From NCBI RefSeq assembly GCF_001625215.2, contig NC_030385.2, forward strand, positions 45,843,598 through 45,907,597: DNA of 64,000 bases, read 5' to 3'. Source of the stretch: Daucus carota subsp. sativus (Eukaryota > Streptophyta > Magnoliopsida > Apiales > Apiaceae). Shown here piece after piece: positions 1,858 through 25,558 of the stretch (positions are counted from its first letter, which is position 1; every line of letters starts with the position of its first letter). Below the pieces are notes generated by a model that ran no database searches, was not told where the DNA came from, and saw only the letters and a program-made list of their open reading frames with translations. The translations under genes were made by a program, and so were the position numbers.

Positions 1858-4535
1858 TCATGCAGATTGGAGAATCTTGGTTTCTGGAGTATAATTGTCC
1901 ATATCAGCATGGTTGCTTCTGGCAGACATTGAATAAGCACGGCATGAATCACTGATCGAAAGGGTCCTTTCTTCGCGGCTTTCTTCAGAGGATGACTGTG
2001 TTCGACTGTCCAGTGAAATGTTATCAAATGACTTGAAACTCATAGCATGCTCTGTTGCTCGATTGACTATGGGTGCTCGGATTCTCTTTTTGCCTTGAAA
2101 TTTACTAATGACAGTAGACATTGATGGCCTCAGAGTAGGCGATGGATTCGTGCACATTAGTGCTAAGTTTAACATCCTTAGCGCCTCTTTCTTGGAGTAG
2201 TTTGAGCCAAGAATCGGGTCTACGAGGTCCAAAAGATTTCCCTGCTCCTGAAGGACATAGGCCTATTGAGAAACAAAAAACATGATCATAAGTTTTGTCT
2301 TGAGAATAAAAATTCAGAGGTCAGAGTGATCATTGAAAGCTTACCCAATCAAGAAGATTCATGAACTCCTCTATTGGTCTGAAATTGTTGTTGCTTTTCC
2401 CACTGACAATCTCCAGTGCAACAATTCCGAAGCTGTACACATCTGCTTTGTCAGTCAGGTAGCCCCTCATTGCGTATTCAGGAGCCATATAGCCTCTGAG
2501 AACAAGAAATGCAGAAATCACCATGCATGCATAATGATTATTCTCTTAAAGAAATACTAAGAAAAGAAATGCTCACATTGTTCCAGCAATTCGTGTGCTG
2601 ATATGGGTCTTTTCTTCTGAATCCAGCTTAGCCAAACCAAAATCGCCTATCTTTGCATTAAGATCTCTGTCAAGCAGCACATTAGTAGCCTTAATGTCTC
2701 TGTGTACAATTTTCAGCCTTGATTCTTCGTGAAGATAAGTCAGGCCTCTCGCTATCTGTAAGAATATTTTCTTCCTAGACGGCCAATCCAGGTTCAAGAG
2801 CTGTTCCTCGCGACCTTACAAGTGAACAACCAATTTAAAGGATGAGATGAAAACCATAAGGCTATCACGATGAAGAAAATGCATGTGAAAATGAGTGAAG
2901 TATCTACCGAAAAGTGCTCTAGCAAGACTATTGTTCTCCATGTGCTCATATACGAGCAACAACTGGTCTCCTTCTATACAACAGCCGACAAGCTTCACAA
3001 GGTTCGGGTGTTGCACAGCCACTATCATGCCTAATTCGTTGATGAATTCACGGGTTCCTTGTTTTGATTTGGGTGATAGCTGCTTAACAGCTATTTCTGC
3101 ATCATCTGGTAGGACTCCCTACAAGAAGCCAAATAAACATGAATTACCTGCAACCTAAGATTTTTATCTAAATTCTATGTCTATGTTGCAATGCTTGAAG
3201 CTCAAAGAAGAAAGCAAGTATTATACCTTGTAAACTGGCCCGAATCCACCTTCACCAATCTTATTAGCACAATCAAAGTCGTTGGTCGCAGCTTTGATCT
3301 GTCTCAGGCTAAAGTAAGCAGTTCGTGACTCTATAGCTTGTCGGAGTTCTGTATCAAGTTTAGTCATATGTTACAGAAGGAAGCCAATAGTACTGTTTTT
3401 ATATTAATTTTATGTTAACAAAATCTCTGACCTTTATCTTCGACGTCTTTTTTTCCTAGGCACCTCGTTTTCCAGAGTACTAAAAGAATCAAGATCACAA
3501 TGACAAATGCCCCAACCACAATGCCAACTATAGTTTCAGTAGAGAAATCACCAGTTTCAACATGAAAGTCTACAAGAAGACTATGATTAGGACTCATGAA
3601 AAGGCAGAACAATATAAGCTGAACAAGCAGAATTCAAGAATGTACTAACTTGGAGTTACAGTGATTGCTGATATAAGAGGTCCATATACACCTCTGTCAG
3701 GAACTAGGGTAGTTCCCTTCCCTGCCCAGTACAGATGGATCTCCAGAGTACCATTAACGACGGTAACATCATTATCCAAGGTGATTGCCTTTCCGAATCC
3801 TTTGGCTTCTTCAGCAATGTTAAAGTTCTTCCGTATAAGTTTTCCCTGTACAGAAACAAAATGTTAAGCCTGGACTAGAATAAGCCTATTTCTAAGGCTA
3901 GAAATATAAATGCGCCTCCCACTTACTTGGATGGATACATCAAAAATGCGCCTTCCAATGCTGTTATATGTCATGTCATCAGAATACTGTATTTCAGCAA
4001 AGTGGAGGCGAACTTTGTAACTACCACTTCGCAAGCAAAGTCCATAGTACTTGAGTGAAGAAGGGGCGAGGCGTGCTGTTTTATAAATTTCTTCACTCAT
4101 GTTGTTGTTCATTGCAAGAAAATTGCCTCTGTCATTGTTCAAAAACACTCCTGTACTGCTATATGCCCATTTCTCCGAAGAATAATAAGAAAAGTATGAT
4201 GGACCTTCTGGAACTAAGTCCTCTTCATACTCGTGTCCTCCCCAGTCCGTTGTGGTTCCTCCACAATTGATAAAAAGTGAGTGATCTGCGGGTTTCAGAG
4301 TAGCTCTTTAAATCAGAATATGAAGAATTTAGAAGTAACTCATCATCATAGTTGAAGAGCCAGATTGGTTTTACACTTACGTTTACTTTTTCGGGAGCAG
4401 GGGAGATCTTTCTTCAAGCACCAAGCAACTCTACAATACAAACTACGAGTAAGTTCCAGTTCATGTTGTGCTTATAAGAAACTAGTACATGCCATGTCCA
4501 TAGAAACTTACGAATTGCTTTCTGAAGATGACATG
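1858..4535 (-). CDS. LRR-VIII receptor-like kinase, 3' part (malectin-TM-kinase), split by retrotransposon
   Basis: Downstream half of a 24-exon receptor kinase gene whose upstream half is at 17490-20778. Exons on this side: 4512-4535 (second part of exon 15), 4381-4430, 3927-4285, 3650-3845, 3432-3569, 3227-3348, 2908-3118, 2577-2814, 2345-2495, 1858-2262. All junctions are GT-AG and keep frame. Numbering as if joined: malectin domain about 420-600 (starts [10 protein letters not shown]), TM about 616-636, Gly loop [10 protein letters not shown], Lys in [15 protein letters not shown] with D798, DFG at 816-818, APE in [11 protein letters not shown]. The kinase is therefore complete and of RD type. 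The family (LRR-VIII-2, LIK1/RFK1 type) acts at the plasma membrane in cell-surface signalling. Frames are intact, but the LTR element interrupts exon 15, so this allele should not make a normal receptor. Confidence 0.9.
4531..4535. repeat. Target site duplication ACATG (left copy)
   Basis: ACATG directly abuts the left LTR. The identical 5 bp follow the right LTR at 17490-17494. A 5-bp duplication is what Ty3 integrases make. It lies inside receptor-kinase exon 15. Confidence 0.92.
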
Positions 4536-5529
4536 TGTTGATAGAGGAATTTGGTGAATCAACAAACGTGAGGTTCGTTGCCGGAATAAGGTGTTTCACG
4601 GTGATTATATGACGAAGATCCGCCGTAGGCGGTGGTTTTCAGTGTTTGAGGGTGGCTGAGATCAAGGGAATATATTTCTGCTCTCGTTCTCACAACTCTC
4701 GATATATCCCCCTGATGTGCCTACGTACCCCTTTATATAGGGGATCAAGCCATACGTAGTTCTATGGAACCAGGAGTCCTAGTTTGATCAGGACTAGGCC
4801 TCTTGGCGATAAGATCGGAGATAGGCCGAAGGCCCATCCTGGAGAGTCCTACTCCTATTAGAATTAGTCTTGAGTATGACCACCTCAGACTCCTAATCCA
4901 AATAGATCACGGATTCAACGATATCTCCACTACGAGAGATAGCATCTACCACGACTCTTATGGAGAAGTTATCTGGGCAAGCCATGACCAACCCCTCGAG
5001 GAGCAGGGACATGTCCTCACCTCCCGGTGAGGTCTTCATCTTCAGACAAGGTAGACTAGGAGCCAACTTACACGATCGTCTCAATCCCCCAATGAGGACT
5101 AACTCACCAGAATACAGGATTCAGACATATGATCGGCCTTCACATTACCCCGGAGGGCCTTCAAGAACCATGATCACCTCAAGCCCCCACACGAGGGTCA
5201 ACTCGGCAGATAGCAGGATTGAGGATTGTAGATCATGCCCGGATGAGCCCGGGAACTATCAGATGAGCCTGATAACTACCAAATGAGCTTGGTAACTAGT
5301 CTTCATATCCCTCGGAAGGGTCGTCACGGAGACTCACTCATCCTCCCTCTCATACTTATTTCATAATTATGTCATTCTTTAAGTCAAAGGGCGCGTCCTT
5401 CGCGGGGAGACGCGTCCTTCCTCTTCCTTGTCTTCATGTTCTTCTTCCTGGACAAGAGACCGCTCCTCCCGGACCATGTCTGGGGAGGACGCGTCCTCTC
5501 CTTCACATAGTATAAAAACGGCCACAACA
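4536..5529 (-). repeat. 3' LTR (left in window)
   Basis: 994 bp, no mismatch seen against the LTR at 16496-17489. It carries three CGCG-motif copies (5388-5399, about 5407-5418, 5486-5497) in the U3 part and a TATATAAA on the minus strand (4732-4739). A plus-strand TATAAAAA lies at 5511-5518, close to the edge facing the antisense gene. Confidence 0.95.
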
Positions 5530-5547
5530 AGTACTCCCCAGATTCTT
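5530..5547 (-). other. Probable polypurine tract
   Basis: On the element's sense strand, GAATCTGGGGAGTAC directly precedes the 3' LTR. This purine-rich run is in the position where plus-strand DNA synthesis is primed. It is short and interrupted by pyrimidines, hence moderate confidence. Confidence 0.6.
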
Positions 5548-5728
5548 CTATCATTAAAAATGTTAGGGGAATCTCTAATGCTCAAACGATAATCCAGCTA
5601 TTGACATGACGCGTCCTCTCCAAGAGGCGCGTCCTCCTCTTTCGACCCTTGCCTGACGAATCCATACCATTTCTCCTGTCATTTAATTTCAATTTTAAAA
5701 TCAAAATGCCAGCTGTCCCCCTTTCCTC

Positions 5729-5736
5729 TATAAATA
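5729..5736 (+). promoter_or_regulatory. TATA box for the antisense gene
   Basis: TATAAATA in the context 'cctctataaataccc' on the plus strand, about 770 bp upstream of the antisense ATG at 6502. A CT-rich candidate leader follows ('ctcgtcttctccatttctc'). A 5'-UTR intron is possible ('ccaaag|gtacat' near 5875 as donor), but I cannot fix its acceptor. Confidence 0.55.
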
Positions 5737-6501
5737 CCCCTCAGAAACTCGTCTTCTCCATTTCTCACGACCGTTATCCATCTCTCCGGCGATTTGAACT
5801 TTCCGAGCACAACACCGCATTTTCCGACCTCCATTTGCAGATTTTAAGCACTCATTCCCTTCACCATCTCCAAAGGTACATTTTTCATCCACTTTGTTCA
5901 AGTTTCGTCAAGTAATTTGTTAGATCTGAGTATGTGTCTCTTCAGTTACCCCTCTGTTCTTCATTTCTTCAATCTGTATATATGTATGTATATCTGTATA
6001 TGCTATGCTTTGATCCATTAGATCCGCTTTAGCTATATGATAAAAGTGTTTGTAGAATGTAAATTCGTATCTAGGCTCAAGGCGCGTCCTTCAACTCTGG
6101 GCGCGCCCTACGCGCATCTTGATTTTCTTGCTTAGTAGTACACATTATTTGTGTAACCCTTTCTATCAAGATCCATCCATCCAACGAGAGGGCGCGGCCT
6201 ACCTGCAAGACGCGCCTTCTCCTATCCTTGAATCGTTACTCCCTTCTATGCCTTTTTCTAACTACCCAGTTTCCTTAATCTTATTTTCCAAGAGGCGCGC
6301 CCTGACAGCCGTTCCTTTATTGTTTTCTTTCAGCTGGCAGACGAGGGCGCGTCTCCTCCCTTTCACCCATTTAGGAGCTTTCTCGGACAACGGGGAATTT
6401 CTATCTCTCCTCCAGAGATCTTTTCTCCAACTCCACCCCGCCCTTCCTACATTCTCTCTGAAGACGAGAAAGAGAGAATCCTTCACAACCTCGCACGAGA
6501 T

Positions 6502-8820
6502 ATGGAATCTTCACATTCTTCAACTCCTCATACACCCCCTCCACCACCTGTTGAGGAAGCCATCAGCACCCCTACCATGACGGGCCGCCCCACAGACTAC
6601 GATTCGGATTTTGAAAACTGGCTGGAGGATCCCGAGGACGCGCCCAAGCGAAAGGGCGTGGGCAGAATGTACCAAATCATCTCCTCCTCTTCAGAGCACA
6701 GCACTTCTTCTCCTTCATCCGACAAAAACGATTCCAACTACGAGATATCGGACAAAGGGAATGAGGGCGCGTCCTCTCACCAAGCTAGCGAGGATAGCCA
6801 AGAGAGCCCTCAAGGCGCGTCCTCAAGTAAGGCACCCAGGGCTCACCCATCTCCTCCACCTTCTCCTGAGCCATACTCACATCCAAAGGTGGAAGAATGG
6901 GAAGAAGACGTAGATTGGACTGAGTATGAGGATATGGAGCTTTCTTCCAAAATGGTCGAAGAAATAAAGAAGAATAAGGGGAAGCTAAGCTGTGTAGACC
7001 AACCTTCTTCACTTTCTTGGGAGGAGCTGGAATGGACAATGGCCTACTATGAGCAAAAGGGGATTGCTGTGGTGCCCCTCGAGGGAATGAGGGCCCATCG
7101 ATTCGACATAGGAAACTACAGAATTCCTCGCCTTGTCCTGACCCCCCGACATGTGAGCTTAGGAGTGGGCGCGCCTTTACATGAATACTTCGAGGCCATC
7201 TGCGAATGGTTTGACATCGCACCCATCCAGCTGTCACCAAACTCCTACAAGTTGGCAGCAGGCCTATACATTCTATACAAAGACGAGGGGTACGGCGCGC
7301 CCTCTATGGAGGAGCTAAGCTATTTCTTCCGGCTCACGAGAAGCTCTTTGGGCTACTTCTTCCTTGTTGTCAGGAAGCAACACAACAACAAGGGATTTAG
7401 TGAAGGGCGCGCCTCCCACATCAAGAAATGGAAAGAACCTTTCTTTTACGTCTATGACGTTAAAAGAGTTAGGACGCAGTTCAACATTTCTCCAGGTCAG
7501 CACTTTTCCTCAGGACGCGTCCTTCCATCTATTAAAATCCTTTTTATTGACTCGTCCTTTGCCTTCTTTAGTTGAACGAGGGATGCCCTCCCTAGAGAAT
7601 GAGGCTCTGGAAAGGGCGCAACACATTTTGAATCTTCCTCACGAGAGGAAGAACATGACACTTCTCGTCACCACCCCGAATCTTGTTAGGGCTGGTTTCC
7701 TTTCCCCCACCATAGGCACTAAGGTGGGGTTCAAAGTGTTTAGAGACGGCAAACCCCTCACGGACAGAAAGCATAGGTTTTCTAGGAAAGAGTCCAGGGA
7801 GCCGAGTCCGGAAGATTTATCTGACCAAGGTATGATGGGGCGCGCCTTCCCTGTACCTTCAAGGCGCGTCTTACACCTTTTATGTATTGGCCACATCTTA
7901 CTTGTTTACTTTTGAAGCACATTTCTTATTCATATCTCTGGTTTATTAACTTATGTACATGACTAACGTGCCTTTACCATTGCTATGCAGATATGGCGAA
8001 CGTCCCTGCTTTTTTCAACCGGACCAGGCTTGGGGAGGGCGCGTCCTCCCAACCCTCGGGATCAAAACGGGGCGCGCCCGTCCTTGATACCCAGAAGCAG
8101 GGTGACAAGGCCAATCCTGCACAGGAGGATTCTCGGGTCCAGAAAAGACAGAGGGTGTTGAAGAAAGGGCAATCCTCCACTGGCCTAACGAGCAGGGCTC
8201 TAGGTGAGATAGGCGCGTCTATCGCCTCAGACGAGGAATTAAGAGCATGGCGCGCCAAGTCCGAGGCCGATAAGGATGCATGGATCCTCAAGGCCAGCTG
8301 TGAGATGTTGGTTCATAACATGGACCGAGAGAATGCTAAGGTGGCTCAGGAGACGCGCCTTTCGAATCTTGAGAAGGAGGTCTCCCAGCTTAAAAAAGAT
8401 GCGAAGAAGCAGGAGAAGGCGTTGCAAGCAGCCGAGAGCGCCAAAAAGGCAGCCGAGGAGAGCTTATCTTCCGAAAGGGCGCGCCTTGACAAGGAAATTG
8501 CTGATCTAAAGAAGGCGAACTCCACCCTCGAGTCTTCCAACCAGAGTCTGGTGGAGGAGAAAGATAAGGTTGAAGGCGCGTCCTTCTTTGAGGGCGTTTG
8601 TAGCTATATTGCTACGTTCCTCTCTGGGGAGCCTAACTATGATTGGCTTCCCAAGTTTGGGAAGACTGCAGCCGATTTCATGGCCAAGTTCCCAGAGGAG
8701 CATCCTGAGCTGATGGCGGCCAAGAAGGCAGAACTGGAGGCCACCCTGGCCAAGGAGGCAGCTGAAGGAACGGCGCGCCAGGAGGGCGGCCATCAAGGAG
8801 AGGACGCGTCTGATCCTTAA
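6502..8820 (+). CDS. Antisense three-exon gene of the retrotransposon (Transposase_28-like region plus coiled coil)
   Basis: Exons 6502-7495, 7572-7829 and 7991-8820 join in frame through two phase-1 GT-AG introns (CCAG|GTCAG...TTTAG; CAAG|GTATG...TGCAG) to give 693 aa. Residues 1-170 are Ser/Pro/acid-rich. Residues about 173-330 form a conserved-looking region (LHEYFEAICEWFDIAPIQLS, then NSYKLAAGLYILY) resembling the 'putative gypsy type transposon' domain (Transposase_28) of plant Tat extra ORFs. Residues about 530-612 are a strong Ala/Lys/Glu/Leu coiled coil, followed by a short conserved-looking tail. The gene runs opposite to gag-pol, ends about 1.1 kb from its 3' end, and has its own TATA box. 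Function unknown. The exon model is my inference from splice signals and frame, and no RNA was available. Several CGCG motifs lie inside the exons. Confidence 0.75.
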
Positions 8821-9946
8821 CCTATGTTACTATTCAATCCAGCCTTGTATCAAACAATGAATGTTCTAGATATTTCGAGGAGCAGGCCCTCTGTAAAACC
8901 TTGCAGATTGTAATTAATAATTACTTTGTTTTATGGGGCGCGCCCTAAACTTCTAATTGCGTTTTGCACAGTCTTTTGTTTGTCACTTTCTTTCATGCCT
9001 TCGTGTTTATATTCACATAATAGTATAAATGATAAGGCAGGGGAAGGACGAGCCTTTCCCGGGTGAGTGCGTCCTCCCTTATGTAGACATCAACCTTTCA
9101 CTCAAAGATGCAAGTCATGCTCCTGCATTTTCTTGTCATAAACACGAAGATAAATTACTCTTTTTAACACGGAGTGGGTCGCGCCCTTCCTCTCAGGATA
9201 TTATTGACATGAGAGGGCGCGTCCTCCGCTTGGGGATGTTTATCGACCGCTACTTAGGGCAACATAACCTTCTTAAACGTTTTTTAAAGACGATCATATT
9301 CCATGCTAAATAGATTAATGCGCCGTCTTCCGGAGGAGGCGTCCTCACAGATAATAATTTCACTTGGCTTCACTTTACATGAAAGTTTTGTTCGCACTAC
9401 TCCCCAAGTGATTTGTCTTATGAATGGTGGGGGAAGGACGCGCCTCTAGAACTCTTGCATCTCAGTGGATAGTTCATCCACTTTTAAGCCATTATTTTAC
9501 ACAGAAAGTTCAAGGGAAGAGGGGGCGCGGCCTCCACACATCCATGGGGACGCGTCTTTTGTAATGTTTTTCTTGTTTTCATAACTCATGATTATTAAGC
9601 CATCATTCTCCGGGCAACCCCTATTAAATGGTCAGGGGGGCGCGTCTTCCCCAGAATCTGGTGGGCGCGCCTGATATTAAAATACATTACACACGTTTTT
9701 GTATGGAAAACAGAGTGGCTCTAGGCCTTTTATTAAGGATAACTGAATCGTAATATGGCCTTTGGCCCATAGTAAATCAGATAACTAATTCGCTCGAGTA
9801 CGAAACCGCACCCGTCCCAAGGAGCTGTTAACTCCAAGGGGACATAAAAAGACTAGCAAGGGCCTTAGTCTAAAGAAGGGCGTATGTATACTACTCCCCT
9901 AGACTAGGTATGATGATTATTCATTGCTAGTCTACGTAGCCTGTGG
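8821..9946. other. Spacer between antisense gene and gag-pol 3' ends
   Basis: A convergent intergenic spacer inside the retrotransposon. It holds about ten copies of the AGGRCGCGYCCT-type motif (for example 9214-9225, and near 8937, 9437, 9638, 9663). A 94-codon ORF at 9029-9313 has no recognisable features and is probably chance. The 3' ends and poly(A) signals of both transcripts are expected here. Confidence 0.6.
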
Positions 9947-12900
9947 CTACTGATAATACTTCTTTAGATGTTCCGCGTTCCAAGGTCGTGGAACGGGCTT
10001 CCCATCTAAGTCTTCTAATCTGTAAGTGCCCTTCCATAATATGACCTTGACTCTATAAGGGCCTTCCCAGTTGGCTCCGAAGACTCCATGTTGGGGATTT
10101 TTGTTGTTGAGCACAACCTTTCTAAGGACAAGGTCCCCAACTTGGAAGGGGTGAGCCTTTACTTTGTTGTTGTAATACTTGGCCGTCCTACGTTGATACG
10201 CGGCCAGGCGTAGTTGCGATGTAGCTCTGATTTCTTCAATCATATCCAAGTATAATCTCTGACTTGCATCATTATCCAGTTGGTCGAAGTAGTCCCTCCT
10301 GAATGACCCTGCTCCAATCTCGATTGGGACCATGGCCTCGCACCCATAAGATAGGACGAAGGGCGACTCCCCAGTCGTTGTCCTAGGAGTTGTGTTGTAA
10401 GACCATAGGACCATGGGGAGTTCTTCCGGCCAATTCCCTTTGCTATCTTCCAGCTTTGTCTTCAGAGTATGCTTGATGATTTTGTTGACCGCCTCCGTCT
10501 GCCCGTTGCTTTGGGGATGGTACACCGCCGCAAAATCTTTCTTGATTCCGAGATTTTCACATAGGCCTCTTAGCTCTTTGCTGTCGAACTGCTTTCCATT
10601 ATCCGAGATCAGCTTGTAAGGGACTCCAAACCTGCAAACAATAGAGTTAAAAACAAAATCTGTTATTTTCTTGGCTGTGATGGTGGCCAAGGGTGCGGCC
10701 TCTGCCCATTTGGTGAAGTAGTCGACCGCAACCACTGCATACTTCACTCCTCCCTTGGCTTTTGGGAGTTCTCCGATCAAGTCTATCCCCCACATAGCGA
10801 AGGGCCAAGGACTAGTCATGCTGGTGAGAGACGTGGCTGGGCTATTGGTGAAATTGGCGAATCGCTGGCACTTGTCACATGCTCTGGCGAAATTGAAAGC
10901 ATCACTCCTCAAAGTTGGCCAGTAGTATCCCTGTCTCAAAATCTTCATGGCCAGTGAGTTGCCTCCCGAGTGGTTTCCGCATATGCCTTCGTGGACCTCC
11001 CTCATCACATAAGTGCACTCCTCCCCATCTATGCATTTGAGAAGGGGCTGATTAAAGCCTCTTTTATACAACTTCCCATCATATTCCACATATCTGGCAG
11101 CCTTGTATTTTAACTTTCGGGCTTCAGCTTTATCTTCGGGCAGCGTACCCTCCTTGATGTATTTCCAGATTGGGGTCATCCATGTTAAATTTTCACTCTT
11201 GTCTTGTACTTCTGTTACCTCAAGCTCGGGGATGCTAGGTACCTCCTGTATCTCTAGGCGGATAACTCCCAACAGTGCCGGATCTTTCTGAGATGCTAAC
11301 TTCGCGAGAGCGTCGGCATCCCCGTTAAATTCTCTGGGTACTCTGTTTACCTGTACCTCTTTGAACTGATCTAGTAATCCCTGAACGCACCTGAGATATA
11401 TCGCCGTCTTAGGCCCCTTTGCTTGGTATCCTCCTTTGATGTGTTCGACCACCAGCATGGAGTCGACCTTTATAACGAGCTTTCTCACCTTCATTTCCAG
11501 AGCAAGCCTTAGCCCTCCGATTAGGGCTTCATACTCTGCATCATTGTTAGAGAGCTGGAAGGTAAAGTGAGTTGCGTTCAAGAGTCTATGTCCTTCCGGG
11601 CTCACGAGTACTATCCCAGCTCCCGCTCCTTCATTATTTACTGCTCCATCTGTATGCAATATCCACCAGAGTTCGGGTATGCTTTCCTTGGGGCATGCCT
11701 GCTGCGGTGGTAGGTCGGGATCATATTTGATCAGGAGACCAGACTCCTCTCCATCTTCAGGGAACTCCAAGATAAAATCTGCTAGGGCCTGTCCTTTGAT
11801 GGCGGTTCTTGGTTTGTAATCTAGGTCAAACTGCCCCAACTCGACTGCCCACTTCATCATCCTACCGGTTACTTCTGGTTTATGCATGATTTGTCGGAGG
11901 GGGTACGCCGTCCTGACCTCCACTTTATGAGCCTGGAAGTATGGTCGCAATTTCCTAGTTGCATGTACCAGGGCATATACCAGCTTCTCCATACTTGTGT
12001 AGCGAGTCTCTGCGTCTAGCAACCTCTTGCTCACGTAGTAGATTGGGGACTGCCCCTCCTCATCTTCTTTCACCAATACAGCGCTTATGGAGTAGTCTGA
12101 AACGGCTAAGTAGAGGACAAGCGTCTCCCCTTCCTGAGGTTTGGCCAAGAGGGGTGGTTCGCCCAAGTGCTTTTTGATTTTTATAAAGGCATCCTCACAT
12201 TCCTCCGTCCACTCGAAATCTTTAGACGCGCCCTTTATGGCCTTAAAAAACTCCTTGCATTTTTCTGACGACTTTGACACGAACCTGTTCAAGGCGGCTA
12301 TCCTTCCTGTCAGACTTTGCACTTGCTTGATATTGGCTGGAGACTTCATGTCTAATAATGCCTTGATCTTTGCTGGGTTGGCCTCTATGCCTCGGTGGTT
12401 AACCATAAAACCAAGGAATTTCCCTGACTCCACCCCAAACACACATTTCTGTGGGTTGAGCTTCATCCTGTATTTCCTCAAGATCTCGAACATCTCTGAC
12501 AAGTGGGCAACATGGTCGGTATCCTTCTTGGACTTAACCAGCATGTCATCCACGTATACTTCCATTGTCTTCCCAATCTGATCCTTAAACATCATGTTCA
12601 CCAATCGCTGGTAAGTCGCCCCTGCGTTAATAAGCCCAAACGGCATACCAATGTAGCAATATAGGCCTCTGTCCGTGATGAAGGAGGTATGCTCCTGGTC
12701 AGGCTCATACATGGGGATCTGATTGTATCCCGAGTAGGCATCCATAAAGCTGAGGAGGGCGTGTCCTGCCGTTGAATCTACTAGCTGGTCGATACGAGGG
12801 AGTGGGAAGCTATCCTTTGGACACGCCTTGTTGAGATCCGTGAAGTCTATGCATGTGCGCCACTTTCCGTTGGGTTTCTTAACAAGTACGGGATTTGCCA

Positions 12901-15900
12901 GCCATTTCGGGTAGAACGACTCCTTTACCAATCCTGCTTTCAGGAGGCGATCGACTTCCTCCTGCAGGGCTTCGGCTCTTTCTCCGCTGATGGGTCTTCT
13001 CTTTTGTCTAGCACCTTTTTTAGAGGGGTCGACATTCAGGTGATGGCACATAATTGCCGGGTCTATCCCCACCATATCTTCGTGGCTCCAAGCAAATACG
13101 TCGAGGCTATTTGTAAGGAATTCTATTAGCTTGCTCTTTACCTCTGGACCTAGTTTGGACCCTATCTTCAGGATCTTGCCATCACTCCCCGGTGTAACTT
13201 GCACGTCGATCGTATCCTCAGCTGGCCCTGTGTTCTGCACTTGCATGGGTAATCTCGGGTCTAAGTCGAAGTCGAACTGGTGCGGGGTTTCCCTTGGTTC
13301 TGAAGATGTATCGTCAGAGGCTTTTTTGGGAGGAGAGGGCTCCTCTAATTCCATGACGATTTCCTCTGGATCCATTTTTCTGACTTTCCTCGGAGGTGCC
13401 TCTTCCACTTCGATAACCAATTCTTCACATTCTTCGGACGTTGATTCATCGACAAGAGTGGGCTCGCCCTTTTGAGGGACGCGTCCTCTGAGTAGTGGGG
13501 TGCTGGGCATGTCTTCGCTGTCGCTTTCCGGATACTGGACAAGATAGAGAGCATGGACCGAGTGAAGTTCTTCGTGGGGCAGCACTCCCCTTCTGTCTCG
13601 AAAATTCTTGAGTGACCGGCCATAGCAATCGCGAGATTCATATTGGGATCCCTTCACACAACCAACTCCTCCCGGGGTGGGGAACTTCAAAGTAAGATGA
13701 TAAATGGAGGTGATTATCCTCATGTCCTTCAAGAGGGGGCGTCCCATAAGCGCATTATGCGCCGAGGGATGGTCGATGACCACAAACTCGGAAATTTGAG
13801 TGGCCGCTCGTGGAGCCTCTCCTAAAGTGACTGGTAAGCGTATGGTTCCTTTGGCTTTGATGGCCTCTCCTCCGAAGCCATATATGTAGAGATTTTCTAC
13901 GGTCATGTCCTTGTCTGGTAATCCCATCTTCTTGTAGGTGTCATAGTATAGAATGTTAACCGAACTACCATTGTCAACAAATACTCGATGAACATTTAAG
14001 GTGGCGATGCGGATGGCGACCACCAAAGCATCATTATGGGGATGGTGTACCCACCTCGCATCGTCCTCCGTAAAGGTGATGTCCATGGTTTCTCCCTTAA
14101 ATACTCGTGGGGCTCTGGCCGACAGATGGTTCACGTTGGTAAGAGGGTAGTCCTTCGCTTCCTTAGCATATTTCTCCATTGCCTTTCGACTGCCTCCCCC
14201 TATGTAAGGTCCCCCAAATATGCTCCTGATGCTACCTTCCCTTATAAACTGAGTATCGCTCTGCTTTTCATCAGCTCTGTCATTCTGTGAAGCACCGAGG
14301 CCGCGTCTTTCCGGAGGATGGTCTGTCCTGTACTTTTTTACCCATTCCGTTAGGTATCCTTCTTTGAGTAAATATTCGATTTCCTCTTTCAGATGCCGAC
14401 ACTCGGAGGTGCTATGTCCTGCTGATTCATGGAAGTCACAATACTTCTTTTTGTCCCTGGCTATATGTTGGGGAATAGGTTGAGGTTTCTGGAACGGCAC
14501 CTTATCCTTGGTCATCGCGTAGACGTGTTCAGCTGAGGCTGTTAGCGGGGTATAAACTCCTGACTGTCTCGGAGGAGGACTCCAAGTCCTTTTGCTTGAA
14601 GTCATATTCACCCTTCCCGGAGAGCGGGCGCGTCCTCTTGGTTCTGGACTGGGAGTACGGTCTTTTCTTTTGTATTTAGATTTGGCGATCTCCTTTTGGT
14701 TCTCGGCCAACGACTGCTCTACCTTTTTGAAGGATTCGGCTGCGGAATATAGCTCGGACAGGGAGGCCGGGTCCTTCCCTTGGAGGTGCTTCCAGAAGTC
14801 GGTACCAACCTTGAGTCCAGCAATAAGGAAGTTCTTCAGGGTTTCGTCTGAGGCTCCCTTCACTCCCATGGATTCCTGATTAAACCTCTTGAAATATGCG
14901 GTCAAGGTTTCGTTGTCACGTTGCTTGACGTTGGCGAGTGTAGTGACGGGTGGAGCGTATTTGGTTGCGGCTTGGAATTGCGTCATGAACATCTGCTGCA
15001 TACCTTCCCAAGAGGAGATGACTCCTCCTCCCAACTTTTGAAACCATTGTTGAGCGCTGTCCCTCAGGGTCGCTGCTAGGAACCTACACCTGACCAGGTC
15101 GGGGATTTGATATAAGTCCATTTCAATGTTGAATCTGATCAGGAATTCGCGGGGGTCGGCATTCCCGTGATAGCGGAGATCTGCATTCAGGTTTCTGAAA
15201 CCGGTTGGTAGTTGGGCTTCGCGGACTGCTGCGGTAAATGGTGACGAGATCTGTGGTGCCGTCGTGGCAGCGCTGGCTTGCAGAAGGGCTAGTAACTTCT
15301 TCAGATCTTCGGGGTTAATCGTTCCGACTCCTGGAATAGTCTGAGTATTTACCGGAGGGGGAGTGGTGGTGGTTGTTAGGTTTGTGTTGGCCACCGTGGT
15401 CTGAAGCGCGTTGTTGGCTTGAGTCTGGGTAGCGGTTGGTTGGACGATTTGGGCGAGCGTTTGCTGTGGAGTGGAAGTGGGTGGAGTTGTCGTGGCTTGC
15501 TGATTGACGGTAGTTATGATTGGAGGTGGCGTGGCCTGTTGATTGGCAGTAGTTATGATTGGAGGTGACGTAGCCTGTTGATTGGCAGTAGTTATGATTG
15601 GAGGTGACGTGGCCTGTTGATTGGCAGTAGGCGGGCCTTGGGGGGGCGTGTCTCCTTGATTGCCAAGGGGGCGCGTCCTTCCCGTGGCTCTTGGGTGCGG
15701 GGTGTGCTGGCTCGAGTCGCTTTGCGAAGGAAGGTACTCTATCACGGGTCCCCCTCGGCGCCTTCCCCTTGAGTTTGGTATGAGGCCTCTTCCTCTTCCC
15801 CGTACTCCCCGGTATGTCCTGCTCGTTCCTGCCTCACGTCTCGCCTCAGGGGGCGCGTCGTTCCCTTGAGGACGCAGGGGCGCGCCATTTCCCTGGGAAG

Positions 15901-16447
15901 GCCTTCTCTGCTCCTGTTCTGCCATTCGCACAATCATAGCCAGGCTGTCCGGGGTGATACCTAATCTTTCAGCCAGGGGTCGGGCGTCTGCGTTTTGGTT
16001 GACCGTCTCTTGTCCCGCCTCTCCCGTTTGTGCGGGAGGCGTGGTCACGTCCAGGGGCGCGCCGTTTGCGTCGTAGACTCCTTGGCTTATTATGGCTCCT
16101 GGTGGGAGGTTAGCGTCGGGAGGCGCATCTCCGTATTCCAACATTCGGGGGGTTGGTCGTCTGAAACGTCTACGCCCTCTCCTGCCATGGCTTTTGGAAT
16201 GGCGCGAGTGTCTAGGGACGAGTTCTTCGAGCACAGACTCCATGGTATCTAACCTCGCATCATACCTCGCTTGACTTTGTTCCATTCGGTGGAGGGCACT
16301 AAGGAGCTCCGTGTTACTGACTACAACCGGGGGTGGGTTGTTCGGCAAAGTGCGGGGGTCCTGTATGTGCACCGGTGAGTATGGTTCTACTGGTTCATCT
16401 TCGACATAGTAATCTCCTTCATATGGGTCATCATCGTGATTGGCCAT
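9947..16447 (-). CDS. gag-pol: Gag-Pol polyprotein, Ty3/Tat retrotransposon
   Basis: A single uninterrupted 2166-aa ORF. Order by residue: basic/Pro-rich N-terminus with a 13-aa repeat (about 275-320); retrotransposon gag domain about 415-590 (FLIRFNIEMDLYQIPD region); CDFHESAGHSTSEC (about 670), an unusual Cys/His knuckle; aspartic protease with VDNGSS (about 824); reverse transcriptase with YVDD at about 1298; first RNase H; second RNase H (LHTDGAVNNEG, about 1592) as in Tat elements; integrase with an H-H-C-C zinc domain (about 1815-1855), DDE core (GIDLIGELP; SDNGKQF; NGQTEAV, about 1886-1985) and a C-terminal GPY motif. No chromodomain. All catalytic motifs I looked for are present, so the protein is plausibly active. 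Gag and Pol share one frame, so Gag excess would need proteolysis or another mechanism. Confidence 0.95.
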   Translation of the reverse strand: MANHDDDPYEGDYYVEDEPVEPYSPVHIQDPRTLPNNPPPVVVSNTELLSALHRMEQSQARYDARLDTMESVLEELVPRHSRHSKSHGRRGRRRFRRPTPRMLEYGDAPPDANLPPGAIISQGVYDANGAPLDVTTPPAQTGEAGQETVNQNADARPLAERLGITPDSLAMIVRMAEQEQRRPSQGNGAPLRPQGNDAPPEARREAGTSRTYRGVRGRGRGLIPNSRGRRRGGPVIEYLPSQSDSSQHTPHPRATGRTRPLGNQGDTPPQGPPTANQQATSPPIITTANQQATSPPIITTANQQATPPPIITTVNQQATTTPPTSTPQQTLAQIVQPTATQTQANNALQTTVANTNLTTTTTPPPVNTQTIPGVGTINPEDLKKLLALLQASAATTAPQISSPFTAAVREAQLPTGFRNLNADLRYHGNADPREFLIRFNIEMDLYQIPDLVRCRFLAATLRDSAQQWFQKLGGGVISSWEGMQQMFMTQFQAATKYAPPVTTLANVKQRDNETLTAYFKRFNQESMGVKGASDETLKNFLIAGLKVGTDFWKHLQGKDPASLSELYSAAESFKKVEQSLAENQKEIAKSKYKRKDRTPSPEPRGRARSPGRVNMTSSKRTWSPPPRQSGVYTPLTASAEHVYAMTKDKVPFQKPQPIPQHIARDKKKYCDFHESAGHSTSECRHLKEEIEYLLKEGYLTEWVKKYRTDHPPERRGLGASQNDRADEKQSDTQFIREGSIRSIFGGPYIGGGSRKAMEKYAKEAKDYPLTNVNHLSARAPRVFKGETMDITFTEDDARWVHHPHNDALVVAIRIATLNVHRVFVDNGSSVNILYYDTYKKMGLPDKDMTVENLYIYGFGGEAIKAKGTIRLPVTLGEAPRAATQISEFVVIDHPSAHNALMGRPLLKDMRIITSIYHLTLKFPTPGGVGCVKGSQYESRDCYGRSLKNFRDRRGVLPHEELHSVHALYLVQYPESDSEDMPSTPLLRGRVPQKGEPTLVDESTSEECEELVIEVEEAPPRKVRKMDPEEIVMELEEPSPPKKASDDTSSEPRETPHQFDFDLDPRLPMQVQNTGPAEDTIDVQVTPGSDGKILKIGSKLGPEVKSKLIEFLTNSLDVFAWSHEDMVGIDPAIMCHHLNVDPSKKGARQKRRPISGERAEALQEEVDRLLKAGLVKESFYPKWLANPVLVKKPNGKWRTCIDFTDLNKACPKDSFPLPRIDQLVDSTAGHALLSFMDAYSGYNQIPMYEPDQEHTSFITDRGLYCYIGMPFGLINAGATYQRLVNMMFKDQIGKTMEVYVDDMLVKSKKDTDHVAHLSEMFEILRKYRMKLNPQKCVFGVESGKFLGFMVNHRGIEANPAKIKALLDMKSPANIKQVQSLTGRIAALNRFVSKSSEKCKEFFKAIKGASKDFEWTEECEDAFIKIKKHLGEPPLLAKPQEGETLVLYLAVSDYSISAVLVKEDEEGQSPIYYVSKRLLDAETRYTSMEKLVYALVHATRKLRPYFQAHKVEVRTAYPLRQIMHKPEVTGRMMKWAVELGQFDLDYKPRTAIKGQALADFILEFPEDGEESGLLIKYDPDLPPQQACPKESIPELWWILHTDGAVNNEGAGAGIVLVSPEGHRLLNATHFTFQLSNNDAEYEALIGGLRLALEMKVRKLVIKVDSMLVVEHIKGGYQAKGPKTAIYLRCVQGLLDQFKEVQVNRVPREFNGDADALAKLASQKDPALLGVIRLEIQEVPSIPELEVTEVQDKSENLTWMTPIWKYIKEGTLPEDKAEARKLKYKAARYVEYDGKLYKRGFNQPLLKCIDGEECTYVMREVHEGICGNHSGGNSLAMKILRQGYYWPTLRSDAFNFARACDKCQRFANFTNSPATSLTSMTSPWPFAMWGIDLIGELPKAKGGVKYAVVAVDYFTKWAEAAPLATITAKKITDFVFNSIVCRFGVPYKLISDNGKQFDSKELRGLCENLGIKKDFAAVYHPQSNGQTEAVNKIIKHTLKTKLEDSKGNWPEELPMVLWSYNTTPRTTTGESPFVLSYGCEAMVPIEIGAGSFRRDYFDQLDNDASQRLYLDMIEEIRATSQLRLAAYQRRTAKYYNNKVKAHPFQVGDLVLRKVVLNNKNPQHGVFGANWEGPYRVKVILWKGTYRLEDLDGKPVPRPWNAEHLKKYYQ
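15490..15640 (-). repeat. 39-bp in-frame repeat in gag
   Basis: About four copies of a 39-bp unit ('gattggcagtagttatgatt' then 'ggaggtgacgtggcctgtt') encode ANQQATSPPIITT-type 13-residue repeats. Middle copies differ by only one or two bases, so the expansion is recent or being homogenised. Confidence 0.85.
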
Positions 16448-16474
16448 CTCTTCCTCTTTGAGATTTCACCTAGT

Positions 16475-16492
16475 CCCCTCCTTCTAGCGCCA
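16475..16492 (-). other. Primer binding site, tRNA-Asn type
   Basis: On the element's strand, TGGCGCTAGAAGGAGGGG starts three bases inside the 5' LTR boundary. It is complementary to the 3' end of plant tRNA-Asn as I know it (CCCCTCCTTCTAGCG plus CCA). The match to a primer tRNA is clear in position and in the TGG start. The Asn identity is from memory. Confidence 0.75.
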
Positions 16493-16495
16493 ATT

Positions 16496-17489
16496 TGTTG
16501 ATAGAGGAATTTGGTGAATCAACAAACGTGAGGTTCGTTGCCGGAATAAGGTGTTTCACGGTGATTATATGACGAAGATCCGCCGTAGGCGGTGGTTTTC
16601 AGTGTTTGAGGGTGGCTGAGATCAAGGGAATATATTTCTGCTCTCGTTCTCACAACTCTCGATATATCCCCCTGATGTGCCTACGTACCCCTTTATATAG
16701 GGGATCAAGCCATACGTAGTTCTATGGAACCAGGAGTCCTAGTTTGATCAGGACTAGGCCTCTTGGCGATAAGATCGGAGATAGGCCGAAGGCCCATCCT
16801 GGAGAGTCCTACTCCTATTAGAATTAGTCTTGAGTATGACCACCTCAGACTCCTAATCCAAATAGATCACGGATTCAACGATATCTCCACTACGAGAGAT
16901 AGCATCTACCACGACTCTTATGGAGAAGTTATCTGGGCAAGCCATGACCAACCCCTCGAGGAGCAGGGACATGTCCTCACCTCCCGGTGAGGTCTTCATC
17001 TTCAGACAAGGTAGACTAGGAGCCAACTTACACGATCGTCTCAATCCCCCAATGAGGACTAACTCACCAGAATACAGGATTCAGACATATGATCGGCCTT
17101 CACATTACCCCGGAGGGCCTTCAAGAACCATGATCACCTCAAGCCCCCACACGAGGGTCAACTCGGCAGATAGCAGGATTGAGGATTGTAGATCATGCCC
17201 GGATGAGCCCGGGAACTATCAGATGAGCCTGATAACTACCAAATGAGCTTGGTAACTAGTCTTCATATCCCTCGGAAGGGTCGTCACGGAGACTCACTCA
17301 TCCTCCCTCTCATACTTATTTCATAATTATGTCATTCTTTAAGTCAAAGGGCGCGTCCTTCGCGGGGAGACGCGTCCTTCCTCTTCCTTGTCTTCATGTT
17401 CTTCTTCCTGGACAAGAGACCGCTCCTCCCGGACCATGTCTGGGGAGGACGCGTCCTCTCCTTCACATAGTATAAAAACGGCCACAACA
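16496..17489 (-). repeat. 5' LTR (right in window)
   Basis: 994-bp copy apparently identical to 4536-5529, bounded by TG...CA and followed by the ACATG duplication. In element orientation U3 starts at 17489 and the R/U5 part ends at 16496. Confidence 0.95.
16692..16699 (-). promoter_or_regulatory. Candidate sense TATA box in the 5' LTR
   Basis: The minus strand reads TATATAAA in 'cccctatataaagggg'. A start about 30 bp downstream would make U3 about 790 bp and R/U5 about 170 bp. The identical site in the 3' LTR (4732-4739) points toward the receptor-kinase 3' exons. Confidence 0.6.
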
Positions 17490-17494
17490 ACATG
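17490..17494. repeat. Target site duplication ACATG (right copy)
   Basis: ACATG directly follows the right LTR end (GGCCACAACA|ACATG) and matches the copy at 4531-4535. Confidence 0.92.
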
Positions 17495-22784: not shown

Positions 22785-23640
22785 TCTATGTATATTATAA
22801 ATCCTGAACAGTGCCACATCATCAATGCCACATATTTCAAAAAAAAGTCCACCTCAATGCCACATATTTTAGATTTTGCCATGTCATTATAATTTCCCTT
22901 ATTTATTTAAGCGTATCAGAATAATCAATCACATATCTTTGAATTCCTAAAATTGAGCGTAATCAATGACTGACAATTATATTAAATTTTGAATGGTAAT
23001 GCAATAACTACATTCCATAATCATAGCATTTTTTGAATGTTAAATTTGTACAGAACTAATTAAAATTGAAGAAGATAATTATATTGAATATACTGATACA
23101 ATTGTTAAGCTTATCATGTATCATATAACTACGCTTTAATTATATTAACTTATATATAAATAAATGAAGTGCTTAAAAATTGAAATTGAAATTTATAATT
23201 ATATTTTTATTTAATCTATGTATATATATATTATAAATCCTGAACAGTGCCACATCATCAATGCCACATATTTCAAAAAAAAGTCCACCTCAATGCCACA
23301 TATTTTAGATTTTGCCATGTCATTATAATTTCCCTTATTTATTTAAGCGTATCAGAATAAACAATCACATATCTTTGAATTCCTAAAATTGAGCGTAATC
23401 AATGACTGACAATTATATTAAATTTTGAATGGTAATGCAATAACTACATTCCATAATCATAGCATTTTTTGAATGTTAAATTTGTACAGAACTAATTAAA
23501 ATTGAAGAAGATAATTATATTGAATATACTGATACAATTGTTAAGCTTATCATGTATCATATAACTACGCTTTAATTATATTAACTTATATATTAACTTA
23601 TATATAAATAAATGAAGTGCTTAAAAATTGAAATTGAATT
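22785..23640. repeat. Two nearly identical 430-bp tandem units
   Basis: Unit 1 (22785-23214) and unit 2 (from 23215) are almost identical, including 'cctgaacagtgccacatcat' and 'gaattcctaaaattgagcgt'. Two more diverged partial copies begin near 23928 and 24138. Confidence 0.8.
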
Positions 23641-25558
23641 TTATAATTATATTTTTATTTAATATTTAATATCCGGAAGTCGTCTAAAATTTAGCTATGT
23701 TACAAATATGTTGCTTTTTAATTTTCGGAATAATATATATTACATTTTCTAACATAGTGATATAAGTATTATAAAAATTATTTTTATAAAAATATTACGT
23801 CATTAATTAGTATGTATTAAGCATTTTATGTAGGTCAACTTAATCATAGTAGATATGTACTATTACTTAGAGACAGCAATCGGGTCGATCGAAATGGGTT
23901 TCGCAAATTCCAAAATCGAATCCAAACTATATTATAAATCCTGAACAATGCCAAATCATCACTGTCAGATATTTCAAAAAAAAAGTCCAAATCAATGGCA
24001 TCTATTTTAAATTTTGCCATGTCATATAATATTCCATATTTATTTTAGACCAATCAGATGTCCTAAGATTCCTAAAATTGTGCGTAATCAATGGGTCGGT
24101 CGAAACAGGTTTCACAAATACCAAAATTGAATCCAAATTATATTATAAATTCTGAACAGTGCCAAATCATCAATGCCACATATTTCAAAAAAAGTCTACG
24201 ACAAAAACACCTATTTTAAATTTTGACGTGTCATATCATATTCCATATTTATTTTAGACCAATCACATGTCCTAAAAATCCTAAAATTGGGCGTAATCAA
24301 TGACTGACAATCATATTAAATTTTGAATGGTAATGCAATAACTACATTCCATGTATCATGGCATTTATTGAATTTTGAATTTGTACACAACTAATGAAAA
24401 TTGAAGAAGATAATTGTATTGAATATACTGTCACAATTTTTAAGCTTATCATGTATCATATGACTAACCATTAATTATATTAATTTATATATAAATAAAG
24501 TGTTTAAAAATTAAAATTGAAATTTATAATTATATTTTTATTTAATACTTAATATCCGAGAGTCGTCTAATATATAGCTATGTCACAGATATATCAATTT
24601 TTAATTTTGGGAATAATATATATCAAAGTTTCTAACATAGTGATATAGATATTATAAAAAGTTTTTTTATAAATTTTAATATTACGTCATTAATAGTACG
24701 TATTAAACATTTTATGTAGGTCACCTTGATCATAGTAGATATGTATCACTGTTACAGATAGCAATTGGGTCGGTCGAAATTGGTTTCGCAAATACCAAAA
24801 TTGAACCCAAACTTGAAAATTTTAGGAATCTTAAACCTGAACTTGAAGGATATTACACGAGTAATTATTATTTATTCAACAAATAATATTATATATATAT
24901 ATAAAATATTAAATATAAATATCTTAATTTTGTTTTAATTTTATTATATATTAAATAATAAATATATTATAAAAGATATTATGTATATATGTATGTATGT
25001 ATGTATCTATGTATATATATATATATTCGAGTTCGGGTTCGAAATGAGTTCCGGGTTTTCAGGTCGGGTACGAATCAAACCCGATCCTGGCCTGAAAATT
25101 ATTCGGGTTTAAAAACAAATTTTTATCCGAAACCCTCTAATTTGGGTTTGGTAAAACACAATCCGCTCGGTACGAGTTAGACTCGGGTCGGGTAGAATTG
25201 TGACTGCCCAATACCTCATGAAACAAGAATGTAGTATAACTATCATTACAGTGGATAGTCATTCAAATCTATTTATTCAATTTGACGTATAATTTTGATG
25301 TTCTTATTAACATAATGTTTTGTTTGATATATAATTTTAGCTTAATATTGTTTGACATATAATTTCACTTGAATTTTCTTGATATATAACTCTCTTAAGT
25401 ATAAGAGAGTTATGTCTAATATAATTTTTTTCTTCCTACTTTATACTTTATTTGAAAATTCAAATATAATTATTTATTAAATATATTTGTGAAATAATAA
25501 TAACAAAATTCAATAAAAATTTGAAGCCCGTGCGCGGAGCGCGGGCAAAAACACTAGT
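22785..25558 (+). mobile_element. Non-autonomous Helitron (possibly nested)
   Basis: The 5' end TCTATGTATATTATAAATCC follows an A. The 3' end has a GC-rich hairpin (GCCCGTGCGCGGAGCGCGGGC, broken by 'gga' loop) a few bases before CTAGT (25554-25558), matching the plant Helitron rule of hairpin plus CTRRT. No Rep/helicase ORF is present. The 5' segment recurs at 22785, 23215, about 23928 and about 24138, so the body may be several truncated copies nested or tandemly amplified. The base after CTAGT is A rather than the expected T. Confidence 0.6.

What the first reader, a model, noticed from the sequence alone, without database searches (positions are those of the whole stretch)
5388..9670. Dispersed 12-bp palindrome-like CG motif AGGRCGCGYCCT throughout the young retrotransposon
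By eye I count roughly 40 copies of a GGCGCG(T/C)CC or GACGCG(T/C)C core between 5.38 and 9.67 kb, three more in the other LTR, and several in gag (near 13480, 14627, 15669, 15850, 15888, 16055) but few in pol. Perfect palindromes AGGACGCGTCCT occur at 5486-5497 and 7512-7523; AGGGCGCGTCCT at 5388-5399, 8036-8047 and 9214-9225. Copies occur in exons, introns, UTRs and the LTR U3, so protein coding does not explain them. Elsewhere in the window only a handful of related GCGCGC sites occur (in the dehydrogenase and VTE6-like genes). A palindrome suggests a dimeric binder. The core fits the known CAMTA CGCG-box, but it could also be the target of the element's own coiled-coil protein, as VANC proteins recognise repeated short motifs in VANDAL transposons.
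Basis: partly seen in the sequence, partly recalled or inferred. Interest (0 to 1): 0.9.

Follow-up and report, generated by a model that had tools for sequence, protein, structure and literature searches.

The report
Retrotransposon families' dispersed clade-specific DNA tags
A young jumping element in what looks like the carrot genome is studded with about 34 copies of a short palindromic DNA word that selection keeps even inside its genes, and related elements carry their own different words, which suggests a tag read by a protein that the element itself encodes.

Summary
The motif is real and extreme: 31 GRCGCGYC sites between 3' LTR and pol (5530-9946) against 0.11 expected, 3 in each LTR, 7 in gag-pol. 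The element (4536-17489) looks like a Retand-type Ty3 retrotransposon; the motif region holds its antisense gene, whose product has a Transposase_28 (TRP28)-like domain.

In 12 other copies this region has drifted to 67-84% identity, yet each keeps 25-32 sites. In the coding sequence, fourfold-degenerate bases inside motifs are 98.3% conserved, outside 52%: DNA is selected, not protein. Genome-wide the 12-mer occurs 1976 times, its reversal 3. Motif class follows the TRP28 clade: one clade flanks the core with A/T; the most distant lacks GRCGCGYC in four of four 2.5-kb stretches but carries GGCGASGA, also in two copies fetched after that word was defined. Three non-autonomous relatives keep the motif.

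Best reading: a family-specific binding array for an element-encoded protein, probably TRP28, working like VANC/VANDAL. Host CAMTA is disfavoured, not excluded. Binding and any anti-silencing effect are untested; all DNA comes from one genome.

The parts
4536..17489 (-). Complete Retand-like (Tat clade) Ty3/gypsy LTR retrotransposon; target-site duplication ACATG at 4531-4535 and 17490-17494
   Evidence: LTR match 99.9% over 998 aligned bases; end bases and TSD read from the sequence; gag, RT, two RNase H and integrase domains, weak protease match
4536..5529 (-). 3' LTR of the element; motif cores at 5390, 5409, 5488
   Evidence: 30 of 30 LTR loci scanned (the window's own two included) hold 2-3 cores near the same places: 25 with 3, 5 with 2
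16496..17489 (-). 5' LTR of the element, with the same three motif cores
5531..9946 (.). POL-3'LTR 'extra' region carrying the dispersed array: 31 GRCGCGYC cores at 5608, 5626, 6081, 6100, 6209, 6294, 6346, 6637, 6766, 6814, 7168, 7294, 7406, 7514, 7839, 7863, 8038, 8071, 8212, 8249, 8352, 8478, 8575, 8772, 8803, 8937, 9216, 9437, 9549, 9639, 9664
   Evidence: 31 observed against 0.11 expected; site list; conservation in 12 other copies
5729..5734 (+). TATA-like box of the antisense gene, with the core pair 5608/5626 (18 bp apart) and the three LTR cores upstream
   Evidence: pattern match; promoter role inferred
6502..8820 (+). Antisense accessory gene; predicted CDS 6502-7495, 7572-7829, 7991-8820 (693 aa): N-terminal low-complexity part, TRP28-like domain, C-terminal part resembling coiled coils; 15 motif cores in the CDS, 3 in the two CDS introns
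   Evidence: splice model; site counts; homologs at 41-51% identity; Transposase_28 match E 0.01 and coiled-coil family matches, all below their cut-offs; aligned homologs carry precomputed PF04195
5876..6333 (+). Predicted intron in the 5' UTR, with 4 motif cores
   Evidence: splice sites read from the sequence by eye; counts
6880..7494 (+). TRP28-like domain region used for the model, the tree and the alignments
   Evidence: AlphaFold2 mean pLDDT 89.3, pTM 0.85 with 76 rows; no significant PDB match
8821..9700 (.). Spacer between antisense gene and pol: motif sites turn over quickly, but each of 13 copies has 3-8 (counted over 8900-9700)
9947..16447 (-). gag-pol ORF (2166 aa) with 7 motif cores, 5 of them before residue 610
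16475..16492 (-). Primer-binding-site-like stretch TGGCGCTAGAAGGAGGGG next to the 5' LTR
   Evidence: read from the sequence; tRNA partner not tested

Best explanation
The motifs form a cis-acting recognition array, repeated over several kilobases of the element (extra region, LTR U3, part of gag), for a sequence-specific DNA-binding protein that the element itself encodes, most probably the antisense TRP28 protein. Shown here: the array is real; it is kept by selection at DNA level, also against the grain of the coding sequence; its sequence class differs between TRP28 clades; and three non-autonomous relatives without a detectable antisense gene keep it. It works like VANC/VANDAL; nothing here makes it a member of that family.
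For: Excess: 31 vs 0.11. Genome-wide: 1976 AGGRCGCGYCCT sites vs 3 for the reversed pattern; the 50 sites listed form 7 clusters, all 7 in Retand-type loci. Selection on DNA: 12 copies at 67-84% identity to the window keep 25-32 sites each; of 45 aligned sites 16 are in all 13 copies and 7 in 12. In 5531-8945 (26 of the window's 31 sites; the 5 fast-turning spacer sites left out) core positions 1, 3-6 and 8 are 97-99.7% identical vs 74% background and CpGs kept 609 of 622 vs 529 of 1144; in the CDS, fourfold sites 354 of 360 in motifs vs 1799 of 3445 outside, while the R and Y positions, in several sites nonsynonymous, vary. 12 of 18 Ala GCG codons of the CDS touch motifs. A site present only in L160 arose without an indel and changes Gln to Ala. 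Clade specificity; in a blind 8-mer search the top word of the window's extra region and of 8 of 8 relatives tried is the clade's motif. Group D's word occurs on both strands (14 + and 23 - of 37 aligned sites), which favours double-stranded DNA. Non-autonomous L166, L168, L169 carry it. [quoted passage not shown]
Confidence: 0.6

Rival explanations
1. Host transcription-factor sites: the array recruits a host CGCG-binding factor such as CAMTA to drive the element under stress.
For: CGCG core is the published CAMTA target; the broader (A/C/G)CGCG(T/C/G) form fits the A and C sites, and 22 of 34 window sites fit the narrower (A/C)CGCG(C/G/T) (PMC10417383, passages); arrays in LTR U3 and near the antisense promoter.
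Against: 12 of 34 window sites and 19 of 22 L170 sites are GGCGCGCC, which does not fit the narrower core; clade-specific flanks; group D's motif has no CGCG; sites spread over CDS and introns, not only promoters. No CAMTA binding data were examined.
Confidence: 0.14
2. RNA-level signal: the palindromes act in the genomic RNA (dimerisation, packaging, or splicing control of the antisense transcript).
For: Palindromes can pair between RNA copies; non-autonomous elements, which need packaging, keep them.
Against: Group D's non-palindromic motif occurs on both strands (14 + and 23 - of 37 aligned sites), though in L202 mostly on one. No RNA folding was run.
Confidence: 0.08
3. Another element protein, such as Gag or integrase, reads the motif, e.g. 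to steer or avoid self-insertion.
For: These proteins co-diverge with the clade as well; non-autonomous elements depend on them (inference).
Against: The densest array is in the antisense-gene module, whose history differs from that of pol (fourfold identity 52% outside motifs vs 81% in pol pieces). No target-site data were examined.
Confidence: 0.12
4. Mutational artefact: spread of a short word by slippage, gene conversion or micro-insertion, or a by-product of base composition, without function.
For: Some relatives carry tandem copies (L166, L169).
Against: No shared flanks; conservation far above background at degenerate codon positions; a site gained without an indel; dinucleotide shuffles give about none.
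Confidence: 0.04

Closest known systems
VANC proteins and their motifs in VANDAL (Mutator-like) DNA transposons of Arabidopsis (PMC5735166, PMC10398659; passages read)
   Same: Element-encoded accessory protein; short motif repeated over the element; motif differs between related families; VANC6 also affects an unrelated element, AT9TSD1.
   Different: VANDAL are DNA transposons; VANC motifs lie in non-coding tandem repeats, whereas here they are dispersed and also inside coding sequence; the Pfam scan of the antisense exons gave only a weak Transposase_28 match and coiled-coil families, but no VANC sequence was compared directly; binding and demethylation are proven for VANC, not here.
Retand lineage with antisense TRP28 ORFs (Vicient 2025, PMC11963269; first part and passages read)
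   Same: Long POL-3'LTR region with an antisense TRP28 gene; LTR and internal sizes in the published range; predicted DNA binding of TRP28.
   Different: That paper reports tandem repeats; a search of its text for 'motif', 'palindrom' and 'CGCG' showed no dispersed conserved motif and no clade-specific motif classes. Its supplements were not readable here.
Grande (maize) gene23 and Retand (Silene) antisense ORFs (as described in PMC7264820, PMC11963269, PMC12477314; passages)
   Same: Antisense gene between pol and 3' LTR; own promoter and nuclear product (Grande); autonomous and non-autonomous partners (Silene Retand).
   Different: No recognition motif is described for them in the passages read.
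CAMTA / CGCG box (PMC10417383; passages)
   Same: CGCG core; the broader consensus fits the A and C sites.
   Different: Many sites lack the A/C before CGCG of the narrower consensus; clade-specific flanks; a clade whose motif has no CGCG.
Subterminal transposase-binding repeats of hAT DNA transposons (recalled)
   Same: Dispersed short motif repeats bound by an element protein.
   Different: Limited to the ends of DNA transposons; here kilobases of an LTR retrotransposon, coding included.

Membership tests
Retand lineage (Ty3/gypsy, Tat clade) | gag, protease, RT, RNase H, integrase between LTRs with TSD | tested here: met
   (protease match weak, E 0.031)
Retand lineage (Ty3/gypsy, Tat clade) | Two RNase H domains (recalled Tat trait) | tested here: met
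   RT_RNaseH and RVT_3
Retand lineage (Ty3/gypsy, Tat clade) | POL-3'LTR region of 2,933-6,566 bp, LTR 315-1,194 bp, internal 7,380-12,869 bp (PMC11963269) | tested here: met
   4,417 bp, 994 bp and about 10,966 bp, from the boundaries
Retand lineage (Ty3/gypsy, Tat clade) | Antisense ORF with TRP28 (PF04195) | tested here: inconclusive
   window exon: 16.5 bits, cut-off 26.2; homologs aligned over the domain carry precomputed PF04195
Retand lineage (Ty3/gypsy, Tat clade) | RT falls in the Retand clade | not tested
   no RT tree was built
VANC/VANDAL anti-silencing systems | Protein homologous to VANC | tested here: inconclusive
   Pfam scan of the exons gave only a weak Transposase_28 match and coiled-coil families; no VANC sequence was compared
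VANC/VANDAL anti-silencing systems | Motif differs between related families together with the protein | tested here: met
   (one genome)
VANC/VANDAL anti-silencing systems | Motifs in non-coding tandem repeats | tested here: not met
   15 cores in CDS, no shared flanks; tandem copies only in some relatives (L166, L169)
VANC/VANDAL anti-silencing systems | Protein binds the motif and causes loss of DNA methylation | not testable with these tools
   no binding or methylation data available
CAMTA CGCG-box array | Narrower core (A/C)CGCG(C/G/T), either orientation, at each site | tested here: not met
   22 of 34 window sites and 3 of 22 L170 sites fit
CAMTA CGCG-box array | Broader core (A/C/G)CGCG(T/C/G) in all clades | tested here: not met
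   GRCGCGYC fits by its letters, so groups A and C meet it; group D's word has no CGCG, with only 1, 4, 2 and 2 CGCG in four 2.5-kb stretches

The most novel reading that the evidence does not exclude
TRP28-carrying retrotransposons run a self-recognition code: each clade writes its own short word tens of times across its DNA, even over its genes, and its antisense-encoded TRP28 protein reads that word to mark or shield its own copies. Protein and word change together, and non-autonomous parasites imitate the word. This would be an anti-silencing or self-activation system in LTR retrotransposons that arose independently of VANC/VANDAL, and would give the widespread, unexplained TRP28 domain a function and a DNA code.
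Probability: 0.5. Interest if true: 0.93.

Novelty: new variant of a known kind. Interest (0 to 1): 0.85.

Why it matters
According to PMC11963269 (abstract and passages) 97% of recently active Retand clusters encode an antisense TRP28 protein of unknown function. The array gives that protein a concrete, testable DNA target, predicts its specificity for several clades (A: AGGRCGCGYCCT; C: W-N3-GGCGCGCC-N3-W; D: GGCGASGA), and offers an LTR-retrotransposon parallel to VANC that can be tested with standard DAP-seq or EMSA. It also shows protein-coding DNA whose synonymous and some nonsynonymous positions are held by a DNA motif.

Tried and rejected
IMG/VR scans were no use: pol protein 0 hits; the 14-base motif pattern gave 120 or more stretches, not analysed. 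The first TRP28 fold with 34 rows was poor (pLDDT 55) and was not searched; the 76-row model was good but has no significant match. The sequence profile against the PDB gave 8 matches, best E 0.19. Regular spacing over the window array was not found (CV 0.81, random 0.96, P 0.15). Pairing at 16-20 bp as a general rule: significant in 2 of 14 sets. Motif-coded tripeptides as a proxy for other species: raised in Heracleum (P0032 5 vs 0.5, P0034 5 vs 0.9) and Apium (P0053 5 vs 0.4), 0 vs 0.8 in Xanthoceras (P0067); weak, not relied on. Rows dropped: of 14 extra regions in the first batch, L163 (homologous over 836 bp, 7 sites) and L164 (no homology, 0 sites) were left out of the 13-row alignment; L159 (one stop), L187 and L191 (frame failed) were left out of the protein alignments and tree; alignments A2 and A4 used 23 and 18 of the 28 usable locus rows. 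On checking, the odds of the best reading went from 0.62 to 0.60 and of CAMTA from 0.12 to 0.14, because the broader published CAMTA core does fit the A and C sites and the sunflower methylation drop is not special to Retand.
Full report
What is in the window. The element spans 4536-17489 on the minus strand, with 994-bp LTRs (99.9% identical over 998 aligned bases), target duplication ACATG and one 2166-aa gag-pol frame. Pfam finds gag, RT, two RNase H types and integrase, with a weak protease match. The 4.4 kb between pol and the 3' LTR holds an antisense gene (plus strand; predicted CDS 6502-7495, 7572-7829, 7991-8820). Its middle aligns with PF04195-bearing proteins; its C-terminal part gives weak coiled-coil family matches, below cut-off. 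Size, layout and the antisense TRP28 gene fit the Retand lineage (PMC11963269), though the Pfam score of the window's own domain is below cut-off and no RT tree was built. The held genome is 441 Mb in 11 contigs, and the two named homologs of the first protein search are from Daucus carota; I infer carrot.

The observation. GRCGCGYC occurs 31 times in 5530-9946 against 0.11 expected (maximum 2 in 200 dinucleotide shuffles), three times in each LTR, and twice in 18-64 kb; seven times in gag-pol. 31 of 35 CGCG sites in the region are in the motif. Beyond about two flanking bases there is no shared context, so the copies are not remnants of a longer repeat. Density per kb is 8.7, 13.2 and 12.4 in the three predicted introns and 6.0, 0 and 10.8 in the three CDS pieces. 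A blind search for over-represented 8-mers (second-order background, distinct flanks) has motif words on top in the extra region (-log10 P 17.7). Of ten 4.4-kb control windows nine reach at most 6.7; one, at 35.6-40 kb, reaches 14.4 through CCGCACCG repeats, a different feature.

Genome scale. AGGRCGCGYCCT occurs 1976 times, its reversal 3 times. Only the first 50 sites are listed; they form 7 clusters on contig C1. All 7 are Retand-type: a family copy (L151), two loci with LTR-like similarity to the window's LTR (L165, L167), three non-autonomous elements (L166, L168, L169), and another TRP28 element (L170). The other sites were not classified.

Selection on DNA. Of 14 extra regions fetched from family loci, 12 were alignable; L163 was partial and L164 not homologous. 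The 12 are 67-84% identical to the window (67-88% pairwise), yet each has 25-32 cores; of 45 aligned sites 16 are in all 13 and 7 in 12. Rates relative to the window copy were taken over 5531-8945, which holds 26 of its 31 sites; the 5 sites of the fast spacer are not in them. There core positions 1, 3-6 and 8 are 97-99.7% conserved, R and Y 87% and 85%, non-motif positions 74%; CpG dinucleotides are kept in 609 of 622 cases inside and 529 of 1144 outside. Fourfold-degenerate third positions of the CDS: 354 of 360 inside motifs, 1799 of 3445 outside. In several CDS motifs the varying R and Y are nonsynonymous while the synonymous positions are fixed. Where a site is lost, single C-to-T or G-to-A changes are common. 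In L160 a site is present without an indel where the other 12 have none: GCG stands in place of CAA or CAG in 11 of them (Gln to Ala) and of a stop in L159. In the spacer (8900-9700) sites turn over, and 3-8 are present in every copy.

A fast, separate module. Pol pieces of the same 12 copies are 90-95% identical to the window (fourfold 81%) and family LTRs 89-96%, against 67-84% for the extra region. The jump to higher identity lies near 9.7 kb. The antisense/motif module therefore has a deeper history than its flanks, by recombination, diversifying selection or both.

Clades and their words. The TRP28 search scored 150 of 450 candidates and shows groups at about 86-100% (A), 81% (A'), 61-65% (B), 56-60% (C) and 39-43% (D) identity to the window's domain. 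Group C (L170 and 12 copies, 66-94% pairwise): 10-13 cores per 2.1-2.5 kb; 8 of 18 aligned sites are in all 13 copies. Core positions are 89-94% conserved vs 68.5% background, CpG kept 214 of 238 inside and 175 of 561 outside, fourfold sites 49 of 72 vs 419 of 1017. In L170 the base four out from the core is A or T in 43 of 44 cases, in the window in 37 of 68 (Fisher P 1e-7); I saw this in L170 before testing it. Pooled over the 13 group C stretches the two places are about 96% and 83% A/T. Group B (2 copies) has 7 and 13 strict cores with many one-sided variants, 18 and 28 CGCGCC[CT]. Group A' (1 copy, L201): 10 cores of 12 CGCG. Group D (4 copies, 2.5 kb each): 0 GRCGCGYC in each, but GGCGASGA 6, 11, 18 and 8 times; the backward-read word 0 in each. 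The word was defined on L195 and L196 (shuffle expectation 0.20 and 0.27); L199 and L200 were fetched afterwards and checked against the backward-read word only. Group D sites turn over more: of 37 aligned sites 7 are in all four copies and 13 in three. Genome-wide AGGGCGAGGAC occurs 346 times against 35 for its reversal. L202, fetched because hits to that pattern cluster there, has 16 GGCGASGA and no GRCGCGYC and overlaps a copy 94% like L200. A tree of 29 TRP28 domains places the motif classes on separate branches. Within the alignable domain some CGCG or group D places are shared between clades (column 142 in A, A', one B copy and one C copy; 100 in A and B; 116 in B and D), others are clade-specific.

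Non-autonomous partners. L166 and L168 have two LTRs identical to each other (1880 and 1615 bp), about 87% like the window's LTR over nearly 1 kb, and no match to gag-pol or the antisense proteins at E 1e-4. L166 has 8 cores in the LTR and 10 in an internal region that matches nothing of the window's element at E 1e-10. L169, with LTRs 99.6% alike and 83% like L170's over 724 bp and only an integrase remnant, has 5 and 10. The motif therefore goes with mobility without the gene, as expected of a site read in trans.

Mechanism. I favour an element-encoded reader, TRP28 first: it sits inside the array, is under protein-level constraint (codon positions 1+2 89% identical against 52% at fourfold sites, motifs excluded), and the published Retand survey predicts DNA binding, with Grande's antisense protein nuclear. 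Against: the confident domain model (pLDDT 89) has no significant PDB relative, and other element proteins co-diverge too. The step from binding to protection from silencing rests on analogy with VANC. Sunflower Retand elements show a local drop of CG methylation, but so do eight other lineages listed in the same passage (PMC12844716).

Literature. Searches run: VANC/VANDAL/motif/anti-silencing; antisense additional ORFs; TRP28 (80); Retand/antisense/binding motif; GGCGCGCC/retrotransposon/palindromic motif; CAMTA; Daucus/Retand; anti-silencing/LTR retrotransposon. None of these listings, nor the passages read, describes a dispersed motif array in Retand elements. The library lacks most subscription papers, and supplements could not be read.

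Noticed in passing
window 5531-9700 against 9947-16447 and LTRs: The antisense/motif module is far more diverged between copies (67-84%; fourfold 52%) than pol pieces (90-95%; fourfold 81%) or LTRs (89-96%): a hypervariable cassette flanked by homogenised sequence.
   Followed up: partly
L166, L168, L169: Young non-autonomous LTR elements with long, motif-rich LTRs related to groups A and C.
   Followed up: partly
window 6334-6501: The reading frame upstream of the first ATG (LADEGASPPFHPF...) is conserved in homologous proteins, hinting at a non-AUG start or a missed upstream exon.
   Followed up: no
window 37000-38000: CpG-rich patch in AT-rich DNA with repeated CCGCACCG/GCGGTGCGG words, perhaps a small hAT-like element (recalled resemblance).
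   Followed up: no
window 62300-63000: Clustered GGCTCGAGC-type repeats with CpG observed/expected near 2, perhaps another small transposon.
   Followed up: no
window 22787-24673: Degenerate repeat array with copy spacings of 436 and about 890 bp in AT-rich DNA.
   Followed up: no
window 15461-15655: 39-bp coding tandem repeat in gag (about 4-5 units).
   Followed up: no
protein P0022: A record labelled Rhizophagus clarus carries a carrot-style gene name (LOC108223109) and is 77% identical to the window's antisense protein over 29% of it: probably plant contamination.
   Followed up: no
G000:C2:1773712-1819377, C2:26666671-26668047, C3:10518915-10526433: Clusters of the group D word without a TRP28 match in the scored list of 150; possible group D non-autonomous elements.
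   Followed up: no
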